A DNA stretch of 64,000 nt from Sistotremastrum niveocremeum HHB9708 (taxonomy: Eukaryota; Basidiomycota; Agaricomycetes; Sistotremastrales; Sistotremastraceae): assembly GCA_001630475.1 (NCBI GenBank), contig KV419403.1, positions 536,009 through 600,008 on the forward strand, in the 5' to 3' direction. Positions 5,767 to 56,814 of this stretch are shown here, in pieces. The notes below the pieces were generated by a model. That model saw only the letters and a program-made list of their open reading frames with translations. It was not told where the DNA came from and did no database searches. The stretch's first letter is position 1; every line of letters begins with the position of its first letter. The translations under genes and the position numbers were made by a program.

Positions 5767-8550
5767 ATGGCGAATGCTCTGGAACAACGGGCTAGTGCCA
5801 AACACTACTCGACCGCTGTATCGTTAATCTATGTCAACGACCATGCCTCTGCTATCAAGGAACTCGACAAAGCTATAGGTAGGCTGTGATTTTCGTCAAG
5901 CCTTTATTTCATCACTCAATTCCTGCGTAGAACTCAGTCCTCGAGAAGCAGCATATTGGGAGAAACGTGCAGAAGCACATATAGCACTTCGACAGTTCAC
6001 TCCGGCCCTTCGCGATGGCACTCAGGCGCAAGCTCTGCACCTAGCCTCAAATTCGGTCCCTGTCGATCTCAACTTGCTCATTGCTCGTTGCATGTTAGCA
6101 ATCGGTGATGGAGCATCTGCACGCGAACATCTCAGAATGACTGTGCTGAAGGATAATTCCCAGAATCCCGTTGGAGCGAAGTTGTTGGAGAGCGCGCGAA
6201 AGATGGCGGATACATGGGACGAGTATCGCGAGGCGAAGCAAGGGAAGAAGTGGGAGGTGGCGTCTCGTGCTTTGGATGATCTCATCTCACAATGTGAAGG
6301 CGGAGAGACTATCGAGTTGTTCGTTGCACGGACAGAACTTGCTGTGATATCCCGGGATTGGGAAACCGCTCTCAGGTACGTTTATGATCTCGTATTGCCA
6401 TGGCTCGTACTGACGAATCTGGTGTGTAGTCTTGCGCGCAAAGCCGAACAGGCCTCTCCAGAAGCACTTTATACAGCAGCTTGGGTCTTCTTCCTCACAT
6501 TCAATGCCCCGGAAGCCCTCGAATGCATGAATAGCATTAAGGCTCTCGATCCTCAGCACCAGAAGACCCTAATCCTACATTCCCGCCTGAACCTTCTATG
6601 CAAGCGACTTCTGGACCTTCAGACAGAACAAAACAGCAACGGCACAACCACTCAAGAATATTCGGAGCAGCTGGATCTACTCATTGATTTTCTCGGGGAC
6701 CGTGAGGAAGACGGACGAGGAGGCGCCTTGAGATCTACTCTTCTTACTGTCCGTGCGGAAAGATCAATACAAGTGCGTTCCCATCCCGAAGATTTCGATC
6801 CGACTCGCTGATTGGACGCTCAGCTAGGTATGCCTGTCGGCGCGTTCTTAGACATGGATGAAGCGCGAAGGATACATGCGCCCATGGACTCTGCGACGGA
6901 AGAGTCGAGTGTGATGCTCCGTTTCAAATCGAACAGCAACTTGCCGCTCTCACGTCCGCCGAAGATCGCTCCAAGGATGTTCTGTCGAAAGCTGTCGACG
7001 AGCGGATTCGAGTCACTAAAGCGGAGGCTCTCGCCGATGCGGAGAATTTCGGTAAAATCGGAGTTGGGTATTTCAAGAAGGGCGACCACGGTCTGGCCAG
7101 GAAATACTTCACCAAAGCGATTGGTGAGTTATCACACAATCAGTTTCGTCGTCGTCCTGGAATTTTTACTGAATGAACCGATATAGCATGTGCGCCGATG
7201 ACGCTGGTTTGGTGGGAGAGTCGCGCAGATACCTATCTCGCATTGAAAGAATTCGCCAAGGCAGTGTCTGATCTCGAGATCTTGCAGAAGTTTGGAGCCA
7301 CACCCTCCTCCTCTTTCTTTGTGAAGATTTCGCGATCCTATATGGCTACCGGAGACATCATGTCAGCTATCCAAAGTATCGACGCAGCCTTGGGTATCGA
7401 GCCTGAAAATACCTCGGCTCAGGATATCAAGAAGGAGGCTCTCAAAATGCGTGAACACCTAAACACGCTACACTCGGCGCAACAGCATAAGCAATGGACG
7501 ACAGTCAGGCACGAATTGAACCAACTCATGTCCCAATGCGAAGGACCCGGCGCTCCTGAGTGGAAGACTTTGCTTGTTCGTGCCGATATTGCGGAAAGCA
7601 AGTGGCATGATGCATTGGGGTGCGTATTCATCTTTTCCAACATTAAAGTTTGATACTGAAGAATTTAGTTCAGCCACTTGAGTCTACTAGATGAGACATC
7701 AGCAGATCACCTCACTCTTCGTGCCTTGGTTCTCTTCCTCGCCGATTCCAATCTAGATGCGATGACGAAAGCTCTAAACGACGCGCTGAAGCTGGGTTCC
7801 GAGTATACACCAGCTAAATCACTTCTTCATCGTTCGGAAGATGTATTGCGGCTTTTACAAGAAGCGATGAGCGCCTTTCAAGCTCAAGATTCCAGCACAG
7901 CTCTTCAGAAATATAATCAAGGCCTCGCCATACTGGGCGAAGAGGAGGCGGAAGGGAGAGGAGGTCTGATGCGAGCCAGATTTCTTTCGAACCAAGCATT
8001 CGTTTTCTATCAGGTAAAAAATTTACACGTTCGGCTCGTACAATGACCTCATTACGTAATCAAAGATCGGAAAATACGCGGAAGCCTTGAATAGCGCAAA
8101 CGCGTCTCTGACTCTAGGACCATCACGTTTTTATCCACTGTGGACGCGTGCTAGGGCACAGAACGTGCTAGGTCGCCATGATGCTGCTGTCGAAGACTAT
8201 AGGGCGGCTCTAGCGCTCGCACCCGATGACAATGCTCGTCGGAATGTCAATAACGGGTTGGTAGTTGCCAAGGGAGATCTACAGAAGTGTCTGCAGATGA
8301 ACTATTTTGATTTGCTTGGCGTATCACGCAGGTTCTCTGTGGGTGATCTGACGAAGGCATATCGAAATAAATGTCTGCTTCATCATCCGGACAAGGTAAG
8401 CAGTCCATCTGATCCTTTCCCGCCTCCACTTCGACTTATTGGTCATAATAGAGCAACGGAGTAGATCTTATCTTCAAGGCTGTACAAGAAGCCTACGCCG
8501 TTCTCTCCGATCCGCAACGTCGAGGGTTATACGATCAACAGCTCGATTGA
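5767..8550 (+). CDS. TPR-DnaJ co-chaperone 1, internally duplicated, one frame break
   Basis: Exons: 5767-5878, 5931-6375, 6430-6772, 6824-7123, 7187-7619, 7674-8013, 8066-8395, 8452-8550. The start MANALEQRAS leads into TPR helices. The protein has two successive TPR modules. Module 1 has SQCEGGETIELF and EEDGRGGALRS; module 2 repeats these as SQCEGPGAPEW and EAEGRGGLMRA. Only module 2 is followed by a C-terminal J domain, with LLGV, the HHPDK motif that stimulates Hsp70 ATPase, and AVLSDPQRRGLYD. Human DNAJC7 is the family reference, but it has one module. The exons sum to 2402 nt, one short of a multiple of three: exon 4 starts in the frame of LGMPVGAFLDMDEARR but must end in the next frame (KGDHGLARKYFTKAI). 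A 98-nt intron 6773-6870 would keep the frame but removes the segment matching module 2. So the gene is either slightly broken or misassembled near 6865-6935. Confidence 0.8.
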
Positions 8551-30804: not shown

Positions 30805-32895
30805 TCAGAACGAGAAACCGCCCCTTCCGCCGAAAGGATGCTCATGGAAACCCCCTCCACCAAATCCGCCTCCAAATCCAGCCCGTCCACCTCCATGCAT
30901 ACTGGCAAATATCTCAGCGAGATCGGCTTGTGACATTCCCATTCCTCCTCCCATACCGCCGCCGGATGACTCGGTTTGACCATCTTCGTCGAAACCTTGA
31001 TCGTAGCGGTCTCGACGTTGTGGGTCCGAGAGGACAGCATGAGCTTCTACTACAAGCTTGAATTTCTCTTCATCTCCACCCTATTGATATCCGTCAATCG
31101 CGAATTATAACGAAGAAGATGAACGAAAACAGACCTTATCAGGATGGTGTATCAAACTCTCTCTCCGATACGCTTTCTTGATCTCAATCTCGGAACAAGT
31201 CTTGGACAGTCCAAGAATCTTATAATAGTCTTTTGATTTACTCCTCTTGAGGAGTACTTCAGCTTTCTTCAACTCGTTCTTCAGGTTCTTTCTATCGCTC
31301 TCGTCCACATCCGTCAGTTCTAGGGCGTTCTTGAAATCAATGACGCAGGACTCGTAGTTCTCGAGGGCTTGGTGTATTCGAGCACGTGTGCGGATTGCTT
31401 TGAAGAAGTTAGGGTGTAATTCGATCGCCGCGTTTGAATCAAGGAGTGCTTTCTCATATTGGTCCAGCTGCACGCATTAGAATGAATCGATCAGGTCAGG
31501 TAAATGAATGAGAAAGAAGCGGAAGCGTACCTTGAACAAAGCGGTAGCCCTATTCGAAAGCAACGTGGCTCTAATGATTCCTCCGTGGCCTTCTTCCTCA
31601 TTATCCCCAATCACCTCCAGCGTCTCGCCGTATTTCTCAACAGCAGTAGCCAACCTTCCCGACTTGAACGCCGAATTACCCTCCTCTTTCAGTCTTTCGA
31701 CTTCTTTTATTCGTCGGATCAGGAGACGGGCTTTGGAATGTTCAGGATCGAGTCGGAGGGTTGATTGCGCGTGCTGGAGCGCTTGGGGAAGTCGGTTCGT
31801 GAGGAAAAGAACAAGGGCTCGAAGAGCGAGTGCATCGGGCGAGTTCTCGTTGATCCTCAGCGCGTCACTATGCCATCCATTAATCCAACGTGTCTGACGC
31901 AGAATGATCACCGAAAGTGACGTACCTAGCGGATTGTGCAGCAGCTTCCCATTTGCCCTTGACAATCTCCATTTCCACGCTCCAAAGCCTCCATTCAGGT
32001 GCACCTCCACCCTCACACTCTGAAATCAATTGATTAAGAGCAAGTCGGGCCACACCCCAGTCTTTACGCTCGCGAGCGTCGAGGCAGGTTTTGAGATAAC
32101 CATCTAGTTTCTCGGCTCCTTTCTTGGCTGTCAGCGCTGCCGAATTGGTGGGTTCAAGTGATAAGGCTTGTCGGAGAGTCGAGAGTGCGGTATTGGGACT
32201 ACCAAGTGCTAATTGACATCGCGCGAGACGGATGAGTGTCTTGGCCTGGGGCGATGATTTTTGGAGAGAGGCGGCTTGGAGGGAGTCGGAAAGGGCGGAT
32301 GAGAAGCGTTTGAGCGAGATATAGGCTGCGGCGCGATTGTTCCAATAATTAGGTTCTGAGGGCAGTAACTCTGGTGGCACGCGTCAAAGGGACGTCGATC
32401 GATGAAGGAACACGGTGGCATACCGATGGCCTGGGTGTAGTATTCGATGGCTTGCGGGTACTGCTTCGCCTTGAAACATTTATTTCCCTCCTCTTTGCAC
32501 TCTTCGGGATCCTTAGGCTTAGGAGGCTCCTCAAAGGCATCCTCCGGTGGAGACCCCCTGCCTGAGCCACCGTTCAGATAAGCCTGCTCCTCCTCATCTA
32601 CGTCCATATCCATCGGTCCCATCGTCGGCGTCTCGAAAGGACTCGTAGGTCTAAAAATACGATAGTCAATACGAGCTCGTTTAGCGTACAGTCCATAGTA
32701 AGGGTTATAAGCTGACGTTGAAGATGACGGTGGCACGGTCGTAGTCGTAGTACTCGTCGTCGAACTAGTCGTTTTAGTCGTAGTTGTCGTCGTCGTCGTA
32801 CTAGACCCGTTCATCGTGCCAGCCTGAGAGTGATGGGGACCAGCACCGGAGCCGGCTCCTCCTTTCCTTTTGACCTGTTTTTTCTTGTTGCCCAT
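30805..32895 (-). CDS. TPR-DnaJ co-chaperone 2 (DNAJC7 type)
   Basis: Five exons: 32895-32424, 32370-31926, 31867-31531, 31467-31135, 31080-30805; sum 1863 nt (620 aa). The N-terminus is basic (MGNKKKQVKRKGG), then a Thr/Ser homopolymer-rich linker of about 30 residues and an acidic stretch. TPR motifs start at EECKEEGNKCFKAKQYPQAIEYY and run through SEPNYWNNRAAAYISLKR and EGNSAFKSGRLATAVEKYGE. The J domain has DYYKILGLSKTCSE and HHPDK, followed by EAHAVLSDPQRRDRYD. The C-terminus is a Gly/Met/Phe-rich tail ending GGRGGFSF. This matches DNAJC7/Tpr2, which bridges Hsp70 and Hsp90 in the cytosol or nucleus. It is the canonical, intact member of the four TPR-J genes in the window. Confidence 0.93.
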
Positions 32896-39134: not shown

Positions 39135-40564
39135 TCACATCAATCGACCAACACCATTACAAGCCGGACAAGTCTCCTCATCGAAAATAAGGAAAGAAAC
39201 CAAGCCTGAGCCATTACACCTGTATGCATCCTCATCAATCCGCATAAAGGGCGATTTGAAAGGAAACATACCTCCAACAAAGTGTCCCTCCAATCCTAGG
39301 ATCTCCAGGTTGAACAACCAACGCACCCGGCGGCGGCCGATTCGTATACGCAACAGGCGGACTCGAAGGCCCAAACATCCCTCTCGACCCCGGCGATAAA
39401 AGTGATGGCTGGGATTGCCACGGTGCAGCTCCCATCCCCATCGGTGAAGGCACAGGTGGAGGTGGTGCATAAGAAGCAGAGGATGATAGAGGAGGGGGAG
39501 CGCGGAATGTTGGGAGGGGACGTTGAAAGTTTGATCGGGCGTCACGATCTGAGGGGTTCCAGGGTGCGTAGAGGAGTGCGCCTTCGTAGGGTTTTGAATA
39601 TCTGTCCCAGCATTTTGAACAGGGGTGTGTGGGATCGAAGGATTTGTAGCCGGTATTGTTACCTGTGGCATACGTCTCTTAGCATCCGTGTTTTATGGTT
39701 CAGGGAAGGATGTTATGACGAACATTTGTGGCATGTGTAGCCTGCGGGGTATACGAGGACTTTCCCATTTCGTAAGAGAGGATGTCCAGGTTGTGGGTTC
39801 GTGGTAGGCCGTCCATCGTTTTGATCATTCGTAGCTCTAGATGATGATGAAGGAGAGCTCTCTGCGGGCCGACTCGGCGGCAGACCAGGCGGCGGTGCAT
39901 AGATCGGATTGGGTGATGAACTGCTAGCGGGTAAAGGAGCACCAGGAGGAGGGGCGTATAGTGATGAAGAGGTGGCGGAGAGTGGTCTTTGAGAGTTGGA
40001 TGTTGAAGGACGGCCAGGGGGTGGTAAGTAACCCGAACTCGAGCTTGAGCGAAAGCTCCCTCCCGTCCGTGAAGGATGCTGAGGTGGTGGCATTGGCTTC
40101 AAATAATGGCAGCAGTCAGTATCTTGGGCTAATTGATAAGGATGGACGATCGTGCTCACTGGAGGTGCGTATCCACTCCGTCCCGTCCCCTGCGGCGATA
40201 AATATCCCATATTCTGAGGCGGCGGCCGTGGTGGTGGTTGAAAAGGTCTCGCAGGCCCAAAATCAATCGATTGTTCGCCTTCAAATACATCCGGTCCAGG
40301 CGTATACGCAGGAGGCAACTCTTCATTCAAAGCATCTCCATCGGATTCAGGTACTTGGACAGCAGGTGGATTAGGATCCTACGATACACCTTCAGAATCA
40401 AACATCCAACAGCAATAGAGAAAACATACACATACTTGAGTACGAAACGATGGTGCAGCAGTCGATGCATTCGACATCCCAGTACTCTGCGGGCTCAAAT
40501 GCGATTGACCCCGATTAGGAGGATTGCGAAAGGGATTCGTAGAGCTCTCAGCCGCAACAGACAT
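39135..40564 (-). CDS. HUA1: HUA1-like proline-rich zinc protein
   Basis: Five exons: 40564-40436, 40378-40160, 40096-39724, 39662-39272, 39219-39135; sum 1197 nt (398 aa). It is proline/serine-rich throughout, with PPAYTPGPDVFEGEQ. A first zinc-ribbon-like pair is CHKCNNTGYKSFDPTHPCSKC. At the C-terminus comes RPPPGALVVQPGDPRIGG, then CWRCNGSG and CPACNGVGR. This CxxCxGxG pair resembles half of the type I DnaJ zinc finger, as described for yeast Hua1. Yeast Hua1 is a cytoplasmic protein linked to actin-patch and ubiquitin-ligase partners, probably through its proline motifs. The last exon is 85 nt, the same as in two other genes of the window. Confidence 0.8.
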
Positions 40565-47879: not shown

Positions 47880-50355
47880 CTCATGTCACAAAAACGGCTT
47901 GAGTCTTGCAATGCATTGCAGCATTATAAGTCCACGGGAATATTTTACTGCAAATGTACCGCCAGTATGATGGACTTATATTGGAAGCTTTATATTGAGG
48001 TCGATTAGCAGGTCGGGTCCACGTTCTCTCGACATTCTGTGTGATTCTCTAGATTGTCTCGTCCTTGTAGTTCGTCTTTGATCTTGTTGGATCAATGCAT
48101 GGACTATATCAGAGGCATTTGAAACGACAGTGATATCGCAGAATCAATGCGACTCGCAATAAGATAGTAGGTGCATGATACGGTGCTGGAAATGCGTGGC
48201 AAGACCTTTGAAATATTATTATACCGTACGCCGAGAGCCTAAGATAACTTGCCTAGTGCCGTGCAGATATGAGACATATCTAATATTTTAAGGAGATGAT
48301 GATCTCACTATATGAGTGACCCAATATTTCAATGGTATCATTGTTGCATTATAGTAGAGGCGCAGTATTATACTGGTCTTGCAATGACATTATAGCATGT
48401 CCCGAGTGTTTCGGAGCCCTCACAATGCTGATACAACATACCGACAACCTCTCCTTCCCATTATCGAAGTGGTGTTGTCGGCGTTTCAGAATTCCATGCA
48501 TCCCTCGACGACTTTGTAGAAGTGTATCCTCACGGCTTTCGTAGACGTCGTGATCAATTCAAGCTCCAGGGTTTGATGATCGCGCAAGCTCTTCTATGGA
48601 TGCTCAACGGCACGGTAACATTTGTGTACAATAAGATTTGATGATGCGCAGTGGAACGAGATCAGTTACAACGTTCAAACTCAAGCTGAACTTTGAATGC
48701 TCGACACCTTTGAGGTTTGAAGATAGACAAAGACTTGTCTGCCAATGAGCCTCCACCATGTGAATCACGTCGTCTCTTGACAGCGCTCCTTCGATCCTTG
48801 TCGGTCATCGATCTTGGCATGATGTCATTGATGACATGTCAATAGAGGAAACACAGAGAAAAGTCGCCGATGTTGAGAGATTGAGGACTCGAAGGACTCG
48901 AAGTCTCAGAAGGGCAGAACGAGGCATGTGATTCTCGATCCAACTCCGACGATCGACTCTGTTCGCGATCGCGGTCGACGAACGAATTCCACACTTATAG
49001 TCTCGTCCTTTGGCACCAGATTCCCCACGCCCTCTTTCTCTCTCCCCCACCATCATCAGCTCGTCTCGCCTCCGACAACGCGCCCACCCCGTCCACAAAA
49101 TTGAACAGTCTCAAAGACTCAAACTGGGGGCTCAATTGTCAATGCTTTCCCGATAGTCAAGTCGCTTGCAAGACCTGACTGATGTGACACGAGAGGTAAG
49201 TTCCTTTTTTCACTTGGACACAGTGTGATTTAACTGCAAATGTAGAATACTCGACACTTGTCATCGTCGCCGATGGGGAGAAACTGACACTGTGTCGTAC
49301 CCAAGTGCCTTCTATCTCAAGTGAGTCGTGTATTGTTCTTTACGATTACCGTGCTTATAGGACGCATATAGACCCTCAACTTCATTGAACAAGAAGCCAG
49401 CGGCAAGCTAATGGGGCATGGTGTTATTCTGCGCACGAAAACGGTTCGTATGGCACCATTCTCTCTGCTTTTCAACGACTAAATAACAATCGACCCAGTG
49501 CCAATCATAGGCGTCCGAAGAGGTTGCTACAGTTCAAGCATAGCAAGTGATATAGGTGTGTCGTTATGCATAGTTTGACTCCTGCTCACTGATTCCTGGC
49601 AAAGTCGTCGCCGCCACCAGTCCGACTCGACAATTTACGCGATGCAATGCTCAATCCATTCGGTCTAGATATCAATTTGTCAACATCGAGACCTGAAACG
49701 AATCTCAACCAGCCTCGTTTCAATGTCAATGTCGTATCCCTTTCACTTTGGTATGTGGGTCCTTTACTTCGCCTCCCCGAATTTTGATCTGATCTCTCCT
49801 TTAAGTGTCTGTCCTTTCCTCTCACCGATTTGCCAGATTCGTGTTTGCGGTCATGGACTTTTCGGGACATTCTGTAATGTTGTACCGCTAGAAATGAAAT
49901 TTTCTCTGGCGCATGCCATATGAATAAATCCCGCAGTCAAATATGATAGAACACTAGATGAAATGGCTGAAAGACGGTATGTGGCTGACAATGGCCTCTC
50001 AAGGCGTTATAAGGCGCCCGTGCGTTGCAAGACAGCTATAATGTTAGACTCGCTCATGAGGCCTCGGCAATGTCTTATTCCGACTGCAATGCTTTCCTAA
50101 CGTGGCAGCGTCATCGCAATCCATCCACAATCTTGACGTCGGCGTATTCGGCCAACCAAATATTGAGTCACTCTTATCGGATCACGCAATATCCCTTCTG
50201 TCCTGCAATGGGACGCAATATCACAGTCAGCTTAAAAGACACCCGGAATATCATGGTATGTTCTGATGTGTTCGCAACATTGTAGATAAAGTATATTCAC
50301 TTGTTGTCTGATAATGCCATTCCAAGGCCCCTGGGTATTATCGCATTATACTGCC
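47880..50355. other. Long unassigned region with exon-like pieces
   Basis: About 2.5 kb without a supported gene. Around 49190-49890 (+) several short stretches are bordered by good GT and AG signals, for example TLNFIEQEASGKLMGHGVIL (49377-49442) and a stretch with LNPFGLDINLSTSRPETNLN near 49650-49705. No continuous in-phase model was found, so this may be a decayed gene. Confidence 0.4.
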
Positions 50356-51686
50356 TTACAATGCCTTGTGAGACACGCTGCGTTTTTGGGACACATCCTT
50401 GGAGTCATCTTTGTGGGGTGACGCGGGCGTCTTCGCTGCACTACCAGGCTTGGGAGCGGTTGAACTTGCAGTAGCCTTCTCCTTCTTTCCGCTTTCTTTT
50501 GGGGCTTGTCCACCTGCATGAGCATCTCCTTCTCTCGGAATCGCAGGTTCTTTCGGAGAAAACTTCCGCGGTATTGGCTTTTCGGCATCGTATCGCGAAC
50601 GAGCAGGCGGTTCGGAAAGAACGGCATAAGCTTCGCCGATCAGCTTGAACAATTCCTCATCCCCGCCCTAGTGAAGATTGTGAGTGGAAGACGATGACGG
50701 GACTTAAACAATCTCGTACTTTGTCAGGATGGTGGGCCAGTGCCTGCGCTCTATAGGCTTTGCGGATATCTGCTTCAGGGCATCCCTCCGATACCCCCAA
50801 AATCTTGTAATAGTCTTTGCGTATGCTTTCTGCGAGGAGATTCAGAACTGCATTCGCTTCTTCTCGCAGGAGATCTCGTTCTGCTTGAGTGCTGGTATAC
50901 TGGTATGCGGCTTCGTAATCTTCCATGGACGCTTCGTACAGTCTCAAGGCCCTTCGACTTCGAGCTCGAGTGCGGAGGGCTTTGAAAGCGTCTGGCTCAA
51001 GCAGGAGACATGCATTGCAATCTTTCACTGCTTCTTCGTATCTCTTCAACTAAAATAATTCGGAGGTTGTCAATAAGGGTCACGAATAAGAGACGAGATT
51101 GACGAACTCTGTATAATGATAAAGCGCGGTTGAGCAGGAGGTTTGCTCTGATTATCCCTCCCATGCCTTCTGATTCACTCTCGCCAATGGGACCGAGACC
51201 CTCGGTGAATTTCTGAATCGCCTCAAGAAGCCGACCGGTGTTGTAAGCCTCATTTCCAAGAGATCTGAGCTCCTGTACGCGTTTGATTCGTTGAAGCAGC
51301 TGGAGAGCATCTTTATGGCTGGGAGACAGTTCAAGTGCCCGTTGCACTTCGCCCGTCGCCTTCACGAGTGCACATGAGAGAAACGAGACGAGTGCCTGAA
51401 GGGTGAATGCATCCGCAGAGTACTGGTTTTCAGGATGGGAAGCTCTAGATCGAACATGATTTTAACGCTCGTCGAAACGCCCAAGATTGAAGGACATACC
51501 TCCTCGCCAAGGCCCACTTGCCGGCCAGCATGGCCACCTCTACTGTCCACCACCTCCATTCCTCAGGCGCGTCACCTCCACAAGCTTGGAAGCCTTATCC
51601 AATGCATCCAGTGCACTCTCCCAGTTCCGTTCGCCACGTGCCTTGTGATAAGCACGGATGAGAGCTTTCAAGTCCTGCGGAGCCAT
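50356..51686 (-). pseudogene. TPR-DnaJ co-chaperone 3, one-base frame break in exon 1
   Basis: Four exons: 51686-51500, 51444-51108, 51049-50720, 50667-50356. The exons sum to 1166 nt, one base short of a whole number of codons. The start is MAPQDLKALIRAYHKARGER; exon 1 begins in this frame but its second part reads in another (ACGGDAPEEWRWW, then AMLAGKWALARR), with the change near 51586. From exon 2 on the gene is clean: TPR repeats LGNEAYNTGRLLEAIQKF, a J domain with KDYYKILGVSEG and HHPDK, and LSEPPARSRYD. The tail is Lys/Ser/Pro-rich and ends VSHKAL, without the Gly-rich or zinc tail of genes 2 and 4. It is a head-to-tail neighbour of TPR-DnaJ gene 4, from which it probably arose by duplication. 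Confidence 0.75.
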
Positions 51687-52414: not shown

Positions 52415-54338
52415 TCAAAACACCCGTCCAATCCCATTGCAAGCACTACATGTTTCTTCGAAAATCACTAAAAAGGAATCAAGGCCAGTCCCATGACACC
52501 TGCACCCTCAATCAGTCAATCTCCCACTACATAAGAAAGAAATGACATACCGCCGACACTGCACACCTCCAATCCTAGGATCTCCCGGAAGCACACGAAG
52601 CGCGCCAGGAGGAGGTTGATTGACGAACATAGGTTGAGGCTGGTAATATGGCATTGGTGCCGGGGGAGGTCGAGGAGGTTGCGGCACGACCCTAGGCCTA
52701 GGATTGGGATTGGGACTGGGATTTGGTCGGGGACGAGGACGGGCATCAGCTCGGGGAACCCTCCGATTCGCATTTGGGTTCGGGTCCGGATTGACGTTTG
52801 GTCGAGGTTCAGGTTGAGGAGGGGGAGGAGGGCGAAATGGATTTGTTCGTGGTTGTGGTTTATGATCTGCAGCGGGAGTAGGAGCGGGTCGAGGAGTCGG
52901 AGTCGACTTCTTCTGAGAAGCCCTTCGGGAAGAAGAAGGTCCAGCATCCGAACCTGAAGGACGAGGAGATGTAGGGGGAGGGGTGGGAGGTCCCGTTCGT
53001 CGGAAAGGATTCTTCGAATCAGTGGGAGGTGTTTGAGATGGTCCCTCGTCATCTCGATCGTCGATGTAGCTCGGTGGAGGATCTTCTGGATATTCCGAAT
53101 CGACAAATGGATTGTCGTTCGTTCTGGAGGAGCTCGGTGTGGGGATCGGGTCTTCCTCTGGAACCGTAAATGTGTGGTCTACGTCACTTCCATGTGCTGT
53201 GGCGTCTTCTTCGGGATTGTACTGCCCATTCTCGATTTCTCCGGCGTCGTATCGGGCACGACGAATAGGATCAGAGAGCACAGTATGAGCTTCGTTAATA
53301 AGCTTGAATTCCTCTTCGTTACCGCCCTACGTAGTATCAGCACATGCTATCTCGTGGAGCGAGATAAAGCAGGAGAACTTACTCGATCGGGATGATGAGT
53401 GAGCACCATCGACTTATACGCTCTCCTGATCTCCGCATCGGAACATTCTGGTAATACTTCAAGAATCCCATAATAGTCCTTCCACAAGCTCCGACGAAGT
53501 AACTGTATAGTTTCGTTGCCCTCTTCGAGGACGACTCTCTTTTCCCCTTCGTTCTCGGCGGTCTCGGCGGCTGCTGCGTAATCTTCGATTGAGGCTTCGT
53601 ATAGTTCAAGAGCACGACGTAATCGAGCACGAGTACGGAGGGCTTTGAAGGAGGAAGGTGAAAGTAAGAGGGACTCGTTGCAATCTGCGATTCCTTGCTC
53701 ATGTTTCTCGACCTGACCATTGTATCAGTTTGTGAACGGTCGGCGCGAACCAATGATACGTACTTTGAGAAGGGCTGTAGCCCGATTGGACAGTAATATA
53801 GCTCTCATGATACCTCCTTTGCCTTCATTCTCATCCTCCCCGACTTCTCCCAAAGCCGCAGTATATTTCAAGATAGCCAATTCGTAATCTTGGGCCTTAA
53901 ATGCGGTGTTTCCCTCTTCTTTCAGTCGGTGAACAAGGTTGATTCTCCGAAGCAAAGCCCGAGCAGGCGGATGATTAGGAACGAGTTTCAATGCGTATTG
54001 AACCTGATCCTGGGCCTCAGGAAGTTGTGCCGATAAGAACAATACGAGGCCATAGATTGTGAACCCGTCATGAGATTTCTGATTAACGAGGAGCGCAGAT
54101 CTGGGAGTCATGTCATTGGAGTAGGCATGTCCGCCAGAAGATGAACGTACCTAGCAGCCAAATCCCAATCACCAGCAGCCATAGCTATCTCGACCTTCCA
54201 TCGCTTCCATTCCACTGGACCTGCTGTCCCAGCTATCTCGATAGCCTCATCCAATGCGTTGTACGCCCCTGCCCACTCTTTCTCGCTTCTCGCTGCATTA
54301 TATTCCTGGATAAGACTCTGGATTCTTGCCGCATCCAT
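52415..54338 (-). CDS. TPR-DnaJ co-chaperone 4 fused to a HUA1-type zinc tail
   Basis: Five exons: 54338-54151, 54100-53764, 53712-53393, 53336-52551, 52499-52415; sum 1716 nt (571 aa). TPR repeats begin near the N-terminus (MDAARIQSLIQEYNAARSE; GNTAFKAQDYELAILKYTA). The J domain has DYYGILEVLPECSD and HHPDR, with LSDPIRRARYD at the start of exon 4. The same exon continues without a break into 190 Pro/Arg/Asn-rich residues and then QPPPGALRVLPGDPRIGG. The 85-nt last exon completes CRRCHGTG...CSACNGIGRVF. So one polypeptide carries an Hsp70-binding TPR array, a J domain and the CxxCxGxG tail of HUA1. The fusion lies inside a continuous 786-nt exon, so an assembly join is unlikely. An Hsp70/Hsp90 co-chaperone with a substrate- or ubiquitin-linked tail is inferred. 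Confidence 0.88.
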
Positions 54339-55142
54339 GACCGTAATCGCTGAGTGACGATATGATCGAAGAATCTCTTCTGGTTCACTTCAGGCAGAGA
54401 CAAGGTTGCGAACAGCTTCTCTGAGGATGGGAGGTCCTAGTCAAACTGGGCAAGAGCATGAGCCTGGTTGCCTGCGGAGAGGCGCTGAGTTGATTTACTC
54501 ACATTTTCGGTAAGATTCCGCTATCCGCGGCATCAAAGGTAATTCAGGGCACCTCATGAATTGGAAATAGTCGGAAAATTGGTCGGGCCTGGTGATCCTA
54601 GACCTGTGCAGCTATATCATAGTATATGAGATACCGTTTGATGGTCCAGATCAAGAAAAGAAACCGACAAGAAACCGATGGAAGAGACTGAACTTCACTG
54701 AAGTCATTGGAATCGTCCAATAGCCCCGAGCGCAGGCGTTCTGCCGTATTGCAAGCTAGAAAATGAGCTCAACACGACAAGGAGTCCCTGAGTTGCACGA
54801 CGCCCTAATAGGCTGATCAATCTTCAAGTTGACAGGAATGGAGGCCAGGGAAGAGATGGAAAACGTGGAAGAGGCTGAGGTCACGGCATATATTTCCGCT
54901 ATCTCCGTCCTGCCCTGGACTCAGCGAGCTGCCTTGCGAGCTGCTCAATCTGCTCAGCGCTCAGCGGATTAGCCCAAGATACTCACGACGTTCAACAAAA
55001 CCACATCTCAGAGCGAATGCCGGATCTGCTTAGCCTGACCACCTCAAATATCAAGAGAAAGAGATGTACTGCTTTTCACTATGCATCTTTAACAACGTTG
55101 TACTTATTAGCACTGGTTTTAGAACGTACTGCTTAGTACGCT
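54339..55142. other. Divergent intergenic region
   Basis: Promoters of TPR-DnaJ gene 4 (-) and the F-box/LRR-like gene (+). No gene seen. Confidence 0.5.
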
Positions 55143-56814
55143 ATGGCCCAATGGAACGCACAAACCGGGGTTAAAGCATTTTGGGCCATTCCAGAGCTTG
55201 TTGCGATAGCAGTGGATTTTTTGGACGTGCAAAGCTTATCACAGTGTGCACGCGTCAGCAGAGCGGTCTCTGAACACGCCCTCAACTCTCTATATCGCAA
55301 AAGTGCAAGATTGACAGATATTTTTGGTCTACTGTGCCCGATGAGAACCGATGCAACTACAGGTACTATCGTAAGTTTCTTCACTGCAGTCGAAAATAGT
55401 TCTTATCACAGAGCAGAGCTTCATCGTACCCCTCCGACCCGCCCATTGGACGCGATTTCGACACTATAATCACAGAATCCAAGAAGTCAGCGTCGAATTC
55501 TTCGACCCTCAGACGAGAAGCATATCCCAGAAAGCCATCATAGACCTTCTAGGGACACAGCCCCGGCAAGAACCATTCCTCCCGTCTCTCAGAAGATTGG
55601 ATTGGCAAGATGTTCACCCCTCCCTCAACCATCTCGTGATCCTACTCTTCCATGAAGGGCTAAGGGAACTCAGAATCTCTCTCGACCCCAGTTCCTCCAC
55701 GAGCATCATGGATTTCCTACCGCTCAGAGCGCCCAATCTCAAATTTCTTCAGGTTTGGACCACGCGAATGGCAGAACATGACTCTCAGTTTCACAATGCC
55801 ACAATGGAGGCTATTCAACGCCTTCCCTTGGTTCGTCTAAGAATGCCCCCAGACCCTCTATCGCCGGGGATGTTGAGCGTCATAGCGCAAAAACGAGAAT
55901 TACAAAGCTTTTGGGGCTATTTTTTCGGACCCGAGACATTCCGACCTTCAACATCAGAGTCATACGGTGACTCTTCGGATATGACATTCCCAGTACTTCG
56001 CGAGTGCTCTGTCAATTGCGGAGATTTTTTGTCCGGGTTGGATTATTTCATATCCGCCCCTCAATTGGTATCATTACATATCAATTACGGGATTCAGGAC
56101 AATATCTCCACAGGGCTGTCGATGCTTTCCAGCCTTCGGTTAAAGGACCTCATGATCGCCATTCGTACATGGAACATTGGAGGGAACCAAGGTCCTCCAC
56201 CCTCACCTACGATTGATGTACTTCGCCCGATACTTGCCATGTCATCCCTAGAGATCTTGGTGATAGTGCATCCGAGGCCGCCAGGACTCAGCGACGAAGA
56301 TATCGCGGAGCTCGCGAGGAGCCTTCCTGAGCTTAGACACATCGAGCTTTGCGGTCACGCCCGCGAAGAGCCGTCGGAAAAGGTGCCCACACTGGAATGT
56401 TTCAAATCCCTCGCGCAGTACTGCCGGAAATTGATTTCCATCTCAATTTGGATCGACGCTTCCGATCCACCACCGCCGATCTCACCCAATGAGATGGCTT
56501 TCAGCTCGACTCTCGAGGTTGTTTACTTTCATTCCAGCAAAATCGATAGAGTCTGGGACGTCATGGCATTCCTGGTCTCTATCTTACCGCCCTTGACGAT
56601 ACTAGAATGGTCCCCGGTCTCACGCCATCTACGACCTGTCATCGGTGCTTCGGAAGTTCACTTCCACAGTTTACCTTCGGCGGCGATGAATTCATGTCGG
56701 TCGAAATGGCAAGAAGTATCAACTTTGTTATCTTCTCGCGCTCAACACCGGAGGGCGATTCAATCCCAGCGTTCAAGGATCGAGCGAGAGCGAGAAAACA
56801 TGGCACACCATTGA
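55143..56814 (+). CDS. F-box protein with LRR-like C-terminus
   Basis: Two exons, 55143-55370 and 55414-56814; sum 1629 nt (542 aa). The N-terminus FWAIPELVAIAVDFLDVQSL, then CARVSRAVSEHALNSLYRKS, is an F-box. The remainder has leucine-rich segments typical of fungal F-box/LRR-like proteins: LRELRISLDPSS, LPLVRLRMPPDPLSP, LEILVIVHPRPPG, LRHIELCGHAREE. It would be a substrate adaptor of SCF ubiquitin ligases; the substrate is unknown. A second donor (GTACTA at 55362) with an acceptor two bases upstream of mine would also keep the frame. This gene is unrelated in sequence to the A-D F-box family. Confidence 0.8.

What the first reader, a model, noticed from the sequence alone, without database searches (positions are those of the whole stretch)
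52415..54338. TPR-J co-chaperone fused to a HUA1-type CxxCxGxG tail
A single polypeptide joins TPR repeats, a J domain with HPD, a long proline-rich linker and the GDPRIGG-CxxCxGxG module otherwise seen in HUA1. Yeast Hua1 is noted for similarity to type I J-protein zinc fingers; here that module sits physically behind a J domain. The junction is inside one 786-nt exon. This could be a type I/III hybrid co-chaperone that delivers HUA1-type clients or ligase partners to Hsp70/Hsp90.
Basis: partly seen in the sequence, partly recalled or inferred. Interest (0 to 1): 0.75.

Follow-up and report, generated by a model that had tools for sequence, protein, structure and literature searches.

The report
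Chaperone helper fused to Hua1 tail
In this fungal genome a helper of the Hsp70 chaperone has been joined to the zinc-binding end of Hua1, an unrelated protein whose yeast relative works with a ubiquitin ligase, and the joined gene looks old and kept by selection, so it may link protein folding to protein disposal or sorting.

Summary
The reported gene is real: a five-exon minus-strand ORF (54338-52415, 571 aa) with TPR-type repeats, a J domain with HPD, a proline-rich linker and a GDPRIGG-CxxCxGxG tail. It is a true chimera. Residues 3-320 match the DNAJC7-type gene at 32.9-30.8 kb (45%), and residues 519-571 match the one full HUA1 gene found in the assembly, at 40.6-39.1 kb (66%). Exon lengths and intron phase carry over from both. 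A tandem paralogue (51.7-47.45 kb) has the same order but is split by a 2.5-kb transposon. Synonymous sites between the two are near saturation while TPR, J and tail stay conserved, so the fusion appears old and selected. The tail is HUA1-type, not a type I zinc domain: two of four motifs, below the Pfam cut-off. HUA1's middle CxxC module is missing. The linker's one PPxY is expected by chance and is absent from the paralogue. Best reading: a DNAJC7-derived co-chaperone that brings Hsp70 to partners of the HUA1 tail, possibly the Rsp5 ligase or endosomal sorting. The fusion is well supported; the function is inferred. No fungal collection was searchable, so spread is untested.

The parts
52415..54338 (-). 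Target fusion gene d (571 aa): exons 54338-54151, 54100-53764, 53712-53383, 53326-52551, 52499-52415
53479..54338 (-). TPR region (residues 1-253), equivalent to TPR2a/TPR2b of a DNAJC7-type protein; no TPR1 found upstream
   Evidence: blastp d 3-320 vs b 243-564, 45%; alignment; tblastn of b's TPR1 finds only b itself and, weakly, the target's own later TPR at 53931-53746; PDB relatives SPAG1, RPAP3, TOM70, DNAJC3
53246..53478 (-). J domain (residues 254-312, HHPDR), split by the phase-0 intron 53382-53327 that is at the same place in paralogues b and c
   Evidence: Pfam PF00226 66.8 bits; genome hits; models
52607..53245 (-). Proline-rich linker (residues 313-525) with NPF at 53113-53105, 53011-53003, 52843-52835 and PPSY at 53077-53066
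   Evidence: NPF x3 reached in 0.0001 of 20000 shuffles, one PPxY in 0.36; no significant similarity to HUA1 1-374
52415..52606 (-). HUA1-type tail GALRVLPGDPRIGGVQCRRCHGTG..CSACNGIGRVF, interrupted by the phase-2 intron 52550-52500
   Evidence: last exon 85 nt, as in HUA1 and the paralogue
50394..51686 (-). 5' part of the tandem paralogue (c): exons 51686-51500 (187 nt, 1 nt shorter than the target's, so frame broken), 51444-51108, 51049-50720, 50667-50394; TPR-J
47884..50393 (-). 2510-bp inverted-repeat transposon without a long reading frame, inserted in the linker of the paralogue; TG on both sides
   Evidence: relatives on C24, C28, C67; length and longest frame 116 aa
47454..47883 (-). 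3' part of the tandem paralogue (e): linker plus HUA1-type tail, exons to 47590 and 47538-47454; no in-frame Met before the tail
39135..40564 (-). HUA1 gene (419 aa as modelled; NPF, PPAY, middle CxxC module, GDPRIGG tail). The middle intron has a weak GTTCGT donor and is uncertain
30805..32895 (-). DNAJC7-type TPR-J gene b (620 aa; TPR1, TPR2a/2b, J, Gly-rich end): the parent-type paralogue of the target's 5' part

Best explanation
The gene is a genuine, old chimera of two gene families that sit side by side on the same strand. A copy of a DNAJC7-type TPR-J co-chaperone lacks the first TPR block and the Gly-rich end, and is joined through a proline-rich linker of unknown origin to the last part of HUA1, including HUA1's last intron. 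Shown: the architecture, both source families, the shared exon structure, a second diverged copy with the same order, and conservation of TPR, J and tail against near-saturated synonymous change. Inferred: the J domain and TPR2-type repeats engage Hsp70 (and perhaps Hsp90 or clients) while the zinc tail binds whatever the HUA1 tail binds, so the protein brings chaperone activity to HUA1's partners, most likely the Rsp5 ubiquitin-ligase and endosomal-sorting machinery. The linker PPSY could touch Rsp5 directly, but that is the weakest step.
For: d 3-320 vs DNAJC7-type b 45% (E 5e-88) and d 519-571 vs HUA1 66% (E 4e-21). Exon lengths 188/337/330/776/85 in d, 187/337/330/(transposon)/85 in c-e, 337 and 333 for b's matching exons, 85 for HUA1's last. 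The last intron falls in phase 2 in the same codon in d, e and HUA1. Tail d-e: 29 of 46 identical, pN 0.25 vs pS 0.74, Fisher 2e-6; exon 3 d-c pN 0.32 vs pS 0.74, Fisher 1e-10. The flanks of the transposon are both open, their frames agree if the TG is counted once, and the 3' flank has no Met before the tail, so it was part of a longer ORF. J domain with HPD above the Pfam cut-off. Four of the five carboxylate-clamp positions as I recall them (K, N, N, K) are kept. Possible partners exist in this genome: three WW hits and HECT hits within 2 kb on one strand at C1:718398-720355 (not modelled as a gene) and six EEVD-stop sites against one for the reversed pattern (not checked to be Hsp70 or Hsp90). 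Yeast Hua1 is a PY-containing Rsp5 adaptor needed for Rup1-Rsp5-Ubp2 with Hse1 (PMC9105457, passages). The Hsp40 Ydj1 is described as substrate adaptor for Rsp5 in heat stress (PMC8698790 and PMC5059457, passages).
Against: There is no transcript or protein evidence. The linker has no significant similarity to HUA1 1-374 (best E 0.85) or to the paralogue's linker (best E 1.2); a PPxY is expected by chance (36% of shuffles), and PPxY and NPF are absent from the paralogue. HUA1's middle CxxC module is missing from d and e. The fifth clamp residue is Thr flanked by Arg, as in b, and a paper on human DnaJC7 says its TPRs differ from HOP at EEVD-recognition residues, bind EEVD weakly and bind a client directly (PMC8429438, passages). 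What the HUA1 tail itself binds is not stated in any passage seen here.
Confidence: 0.5

Rival explanations
1. The tail is a single zinc site that acts as a simple client-binding or dimerising module for the J-protein, much as part of a type I zinc domain would, and has nothing to do with Rsp5 or sorting.
For: The tail resembles the DnaJ CxxCxGxG domain weakly (Pfam 21.3 bits; E. coli-type DnaJ 1exk and MAS5 1nlt at E 0.04 and 0.35). The PPxY is not in the paralogue and is expected by chance.
Against: The only strong similarity of the tail is to HUA1, and the tail query found no type I locus in the assembly at E up to 10. The two PF00684 matches over cut-off lie elsewhere (C1, C15).
Confidence: 0.28
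2. The fusion competes with full HUA1 for its tail-binding partner (a decoy or regulator) without delivering Hsp70.
For: The fusion keeps the HUA1 tail but lacks HUA1's middle CxxC module.
Against: J domain and TPR exons show pN well below pS, as the tail does, which a pure decoy would not need.
Confidence: 0.1
3. Two separate genes or transcripts: a TPR-J gene and a HUA1-like gene that only look fused.
For: No transcript data; the parent-type genes are separate genes in the same window. A neighbouring frame of the linker is nearly open too (1 stop).
Against: No stop over the 776-nt exon. After the J domain the first Met of d is at 510, so a separate tail gene would be about 60 residues; in the paralogue the tail frame has no Met between transposon and tail. 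Unbroken linker frame p = 0.0035.
Confidence: 0.05
4. The target is itself a decaying duplicate with no present function.
For: Its tandem twin is broken by a transposon and a 1-nt shorter exon 1.
Against: The target has an intact 571-aa frame, four GT-AG introns, HPD and all four tail cysteines, and pN well below pS across TPR, J and tail; those values average over time, so recent loss is not excluded.
Confidence: 0.07

Closest known systems
DNAJC7 / TPR2 (class C J-protein)
   Same: TPR blocks followed by a J domain with HPD; 45% identity to the local DNAJC7-type gene over target residues 3-320; same or nearly same exon lengths and the same intron phases in the TPR-J part
   Different: The first TPR block and the Gly-rich end are gone; a 213-residue linker and a HUA1 tail follow
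HUA1 (fungal Rsp5 adaptor)
   Same: C-terminal GDPRIGG-CxxCxGxG...CxxCxGxGR tail, 66% identical, with the same last intron; PPxY and NPF motifs occur in both
   Different: The middle CxxC module is absent; no significant similarity in front of the tail; TPR-J is in front
Type I J-proteins (Ydj1/DnaJ)
   Same: J domain and CxxCxGxG zinc motifs in one chain
   Different: J domain is internal, behind TPRs; two instead of four zinc motifs; no DnaJ C-terminal domain among the Pfam hits; tail scores below PF00684 cut-off
CHIP/STUB1 (TPR plus U-box)
   Same: Works-like comparison only (recalled): a TPR co-chaperone tied to ubiquitin ligation
   Different: CHIP carries its own ligase domain (recalled); here a ligase could only be recruited, and that is not shown

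Membership tests
J-domain protein | J domain above family cut-off with HPD | tested here: met
   PF00226 66.8 bits vs 27.8, HHPDR
Type I (class A) J-protein | Four CxxCxGxG motifs (PF00684 above cut-off) | tested here: not met
   Two motifs; 16.3 bits (whole protein) / 21.3 (tail) vs 32.7
Type I (class A) J-protein | N-terminal J domain, G/F region, C-terminal client-binding domains | tested here: not met
   J at residues 254-312 behind TPRs; no DnaJ C-terminal domain among the Pfam hits at E up to 0.1
DNAJC7-type (class C) | TPR blocks followed by J domain, homologous over the length | tested here: met
   45% identity over residues 3-320 of the target, E 5e-88; Pfam TPR models themselves stay below cut-off in the target
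DNAJC7-type (class C) | Three TPR domains (TPR1, 2a, 2b) | tested here: not met
   Match starts at residue 243 of b; no TPR1 found near the target or its twin
DNAJC7-type (class C) | Binding of Hsp70/Hsp90 EEVD tails | not testable with these tools
   K, N, N, K of the clamp kept, R replaced by T between two R, as in b (clamp recalled)
HUA1 | GDPRIGG-CxxCxGxG tail | tested here: met
   66% over 53 residues; 6 matches at 3 loci in the assembly, all in this window (a lower bound)
HUA1 | Middle CxxC module before the tail | tested here: not met
   Absent in d and e; found at one locus in the assembly, HUA1 itself
Rsp5 adaptor | PPxY (PY) motif | tested here: inconclusive
   One PPSY in d; at least one in 36% of shuffles; none in c/e
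Rsp5 adaptor | Binds Rsp5 and directs ubiquitination | not testable with these tools
   Three WW hits and HECT hits lie together on C1; binding cannot be computed here

The most novel reading that the evidence does not exclude
A built-in Hsp70-to-Rsp5 bridge. In yeast the Hsp40 Ydj1 and the PY adaptor Hua1 are separate proteins working with Rsp5; here evolution fused a J-protein to the HUA1 tail, giving one chain that can take a client from Hsp70 and present it to Rsp5/ESCRT-0 for disposal or sorting.
Probability: 0.27. Interest if true: 0.72.

Novelty: new variant of a known kind. Interest (0 to 1): 0.5.

Why it matters
Natural fusions often join proteins that act in one pathway (general knowledge). 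A kept TPR-J-HUA1 fusion would be genetic evidence that HUA1, whose zinc tail has no assigned function in any passage seen here, acts together with Hsp70, and it would suggest that the weak likeness of HUA1 to DnaJ zinc fingers reflects shared working partners. It makes testable how Hsp70 clients reach the Rsp5 ligase, now ascribed to Ydj1 and to exposed PY motifs (PMC5059457, passage). The locus also holds both parent-type genes and a transposon-split twin within 24 kb.

Tried and rejected
Scans for relatives of the tail in other collections gave nothing real. In viral contigs, 64 stretches matched a pattern and 0 encoded a relative. In bacterial and archaeal genomes, 176 stretches matched and 3 loci passed; by my reading of the ORFs, two of these (L010, L012) are a GDPR-like stretch inside proteins that look like glutathione transferases and one (L011) is the wrong frame of an enoyl-CoA-hydratase-like gene. 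Rejected as chance.

The idea that the whole of HUA1, with NPF and PPxY, was carried over: rejected for lack of significant linker similarity. NPF x3 exceeds shuffles (0.0001 of 20000), but I picked the motif after seeing it.

An origin of the tail from a type I J-protein: rejected, because the tail matches HUA1 strongly and the tail query found no other locus. A PF00684 search of the assembly listed 6 matches on C1, C15, C17, C47 (two) and C9 and none at this locus; that search scores a few best candidates exon by exon, and the tails here are split by an intron, so their absence from the list says little.

My first alignment of the e piece started in a wrong frame; corrected. The tail and exon figures were taken from in-frame ends and were repeated. 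dN/dS as a ratio: not relied on, since synonymous sites are saturated in several pairs; pN and pS with Fisher tests are given instead. The transposon's flanking dinucleotides match in the window (TG) and on C24 (TA) but not on the C28 copy (AT and TA), and only one end of the C67 copy was seen, so a fixed 2-bp duplication is not established. NCBIfam gave only J-domain and distant TPR matches far below their cut-offs.

Papers: Fang 2014 and Ren 2007 are not held and are known here only through citing papers. Ten paper searches were made; none of the listings shows this architecture: Hua1 + Rsp5 (3 papers), Ydj1 + Rsp5 + misfolded + ubiquitin (38, 12 listed), DNAJC7 + TPR + Hsp90 + Hsp70 (50, 15 listed), Hua1 + J-protein (0), J-domain protein + PPxY + NEDD4 (1), HUA1 + zinc finger + yeast + ubiquitin (12, 11 of them apparently on other HUA1 genes or topics), J domain + Hsp40 + Basidiomycota + TPR (0), Hua1 + Hse1 (1), Hua1 + DnaJ (7), Hsp40 + Rsp5 + PY motif + adaptor (1). 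Six of these papers were opened, as passages only: and PMC8429438 makes seven.

Full report
Observation. On the minus strand between 54338 and 52415 there is a five-exon gene: 54338-54151, 54100-53764, 53712-53383, 53326-52551, 52499-52415. All four introns begin GT and end AG, and the product is 571 residues. Pfam places a J domain at 254-312 (66.8 bits, cut-off 27.8; HHPD). TPR models match within 124-233 and the DnaJ_CXXCXGXG model matches the tail, all below their curated cut-offs; the TPR reading rests on homology to gene b, where the TPR models score far above cut-off, and on solved relatives.

Two sources. blastp of the product against the modelled genes b and HUA1 gives two clean blocks: residues 3-320 against residues 243-564 of the DNAJC7-type gene b (32895-30805; 45%, E 5e-88), and residues 519-571 against residues 367-419 of HUA1 (40564-39135; 66%, E 4e-21). 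The linker between has no significant match to HUA1 1-374 (best E 0.85). Gene structure agrees. The target's exons 2 and 3 are 337 and 330 nt, b's matching exons are 337 and 333; the target's last exon is 85 nt, as is HUA1's. The last intron cuts the same codon in phase 2 (CG|G in the target, AG|G in HUA1). So the tail came with its intron from a HUA1 gene, and the TPR-J part from a DNAJC7-type gene. In the 34.7-Mb assembly the tail query found 6 matches at three loci, all in this window, and HUA1's middle CxxC module was found at one locus, HUA1 itself; both are lower bounds by the tool's own statement. b's first TPR block has no match near the target or its twin.

A second copy. At 51686-50394 lies another TPR-J gene with exons of 187, 337 and 330 nt and a fourth that is cut off, and at 47883-47454 a linker stretch with the same tail and an 85-nt last exon. 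The 2510 bp between (50393-47884) begin TGTCCCAAAAACG and end CGTTTTTGTGACA, are flanked by TG on both sides, and have relatives on C24, C28 and C67, the C24 copy matching at both ends at 81-84% and in the middle at 71%. It is a transposon without a long reading frame (longest 116 aa). Flanking dinucleotides agree here (TG) and on C24 (TA) but not on C28. Both flanks in the paralogue are open in frame; the frames agree if the TG is counted once (a one-in-three chance otherwise); and there is no Met between the element and the tail. Hence these were most likely one gene with the same TPR-J-linker-HUA1 order. Its first exon is also 1 nt shorter than the target's, which breaks the frame. The two copies share the missing first TPR block and the HUA1 tail, which favours one fusion event followed by duplication; on identity alone the three TPR-J genes are about equally distant (exon 2: d-b 52%, d-c 46%, c-b 46%; exon 3: 41%, 51%, 47%), as are the three tails (d-HUA1 67%, d-e 63%, e-HUA1 59%), so two independent fusions are not excluded.

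Age and constraint. Between target and paralogue, 76% and 74% of synonymous sites in exons 2 and 3 differ (near saturation) while nonsynonymous sites differ at 39% and 32% (Fisher 6e-9 and 1e-10). For the tail, 24.3 of 33.0 synonymous and 26.7 of 105.0 nonsynonymous sites differ (Fisher 2e-6); 29 of 46 residues are identical against at most 12 in 20000 shuffles. The fusion therefore appears old, and its TPR, J and tail parts have been kept. These averages cannot exclude recent loss in the target. For the linker itself the coding evidence is weaker: the frame is open over 231 codons (0.35% of 2000 simulations), but two other frames have only one stop each and codon usage favours the coding frame only slightly.

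How it may work. Shown here: J domain with HPD, TPR blocks whose closest solved relatives include SPAG1, RPAP3, TOM70 and DNAJC3, and a tail with four cysteines in two CxxCxGxG motifs. Four of the five carboxylate-clamp positions as I recall them (K, N, N, K) are kept; the fifth is Thr between two Arg, as in b. [quoted passage not shown] Yeast Hua1 is a PY-containing Rsp5 adaptor required for the Rup1-Rsp5-Ubp2 complex to meet Hse1 of ESCRT-0 (PMC9105457) and is proposed to act late in the endocytic pathway (PMC7860119). Rsp5 recognises heat-misfolded proteins through the Hsp40 Ydj1 and through exposed PY motifs, with Ubp2 and Rup1 in the same pathway (PMC5059457; PMC8698790). This assembly has three WW hits and HECT hits within 2 kb on one strand (C1:718398-720355; not modelled) and six EEVD-stop sites against one for the reversed pattern (not checked to be Hsp70 or Hsp90). 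The inferred mechanism is a co-chaperone that carries Hsp70 to HUA1's partners.

Weak links. At least one PPxY occurs in 36% of shuffles of the linker; three NPF motifs do not (0.0001), but I chose that motif after seeing it; neither occurs in the paralogue's linker. No transcript, protein or interaction data exist here. No fungal collection could be searched, so it is unknown whether other Agaricomycetes share the gene; the organism's class itself was not tested.

Origin (inference). Read along the minus strand the order is target, broken twin, HUA1, DNAJC7-type gene. A tandem duplication of a HUA1-DNAJC7 pair would put a DNAJC7 copy just upstream of a HUA1 copy on the same strand, where read-through or deletion can fuse them.

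Verdict. A real, apparently old and conserved gene fusion, not found in the ten paper searches made (listings only, two of them capped). It is a variant of DNAJC7-type J-proteins, not a type I protein. The chaperone-to-ligase function is a good hypothesis, not a result.

Noticed in passing
window 5879-8550 (+): A fourth, diverged TPR-J gene (tblastn with b, E 2e-46 and 8e-22 over two TPR stretches) whose frame ends right after the J domain (no Gly-rich end, no HUA1 tail); with the target, its split twin and gene b the 64-kb window holds four TPR-J genes. Its exons were not modelled.
   Followed up: partly
window 47884-50393: Inverted-repeat transposon (TGTCCCAAAAACG ends) without a long reading frame, TG on both sides here, TA on both sides of the C24 copy, unequal dinucleotides at the C28 copy; relatives on C24, C28, C67. 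Family not determined; the longer C28 copy holds a withheld stretch.
   Followed up: partly
window 39663-39723: HUA1 needs an intron with an unusual GTTCGT donor to keep its middle CxxC module in frame; this intron is uncertain.
   Followed up: no
window 55137-56814 (+): Next to the target's 5' end, on the other strand, lies an ORF that reads like an F-box-type protein (my reading of the translation, no family search).
   Followed up: no
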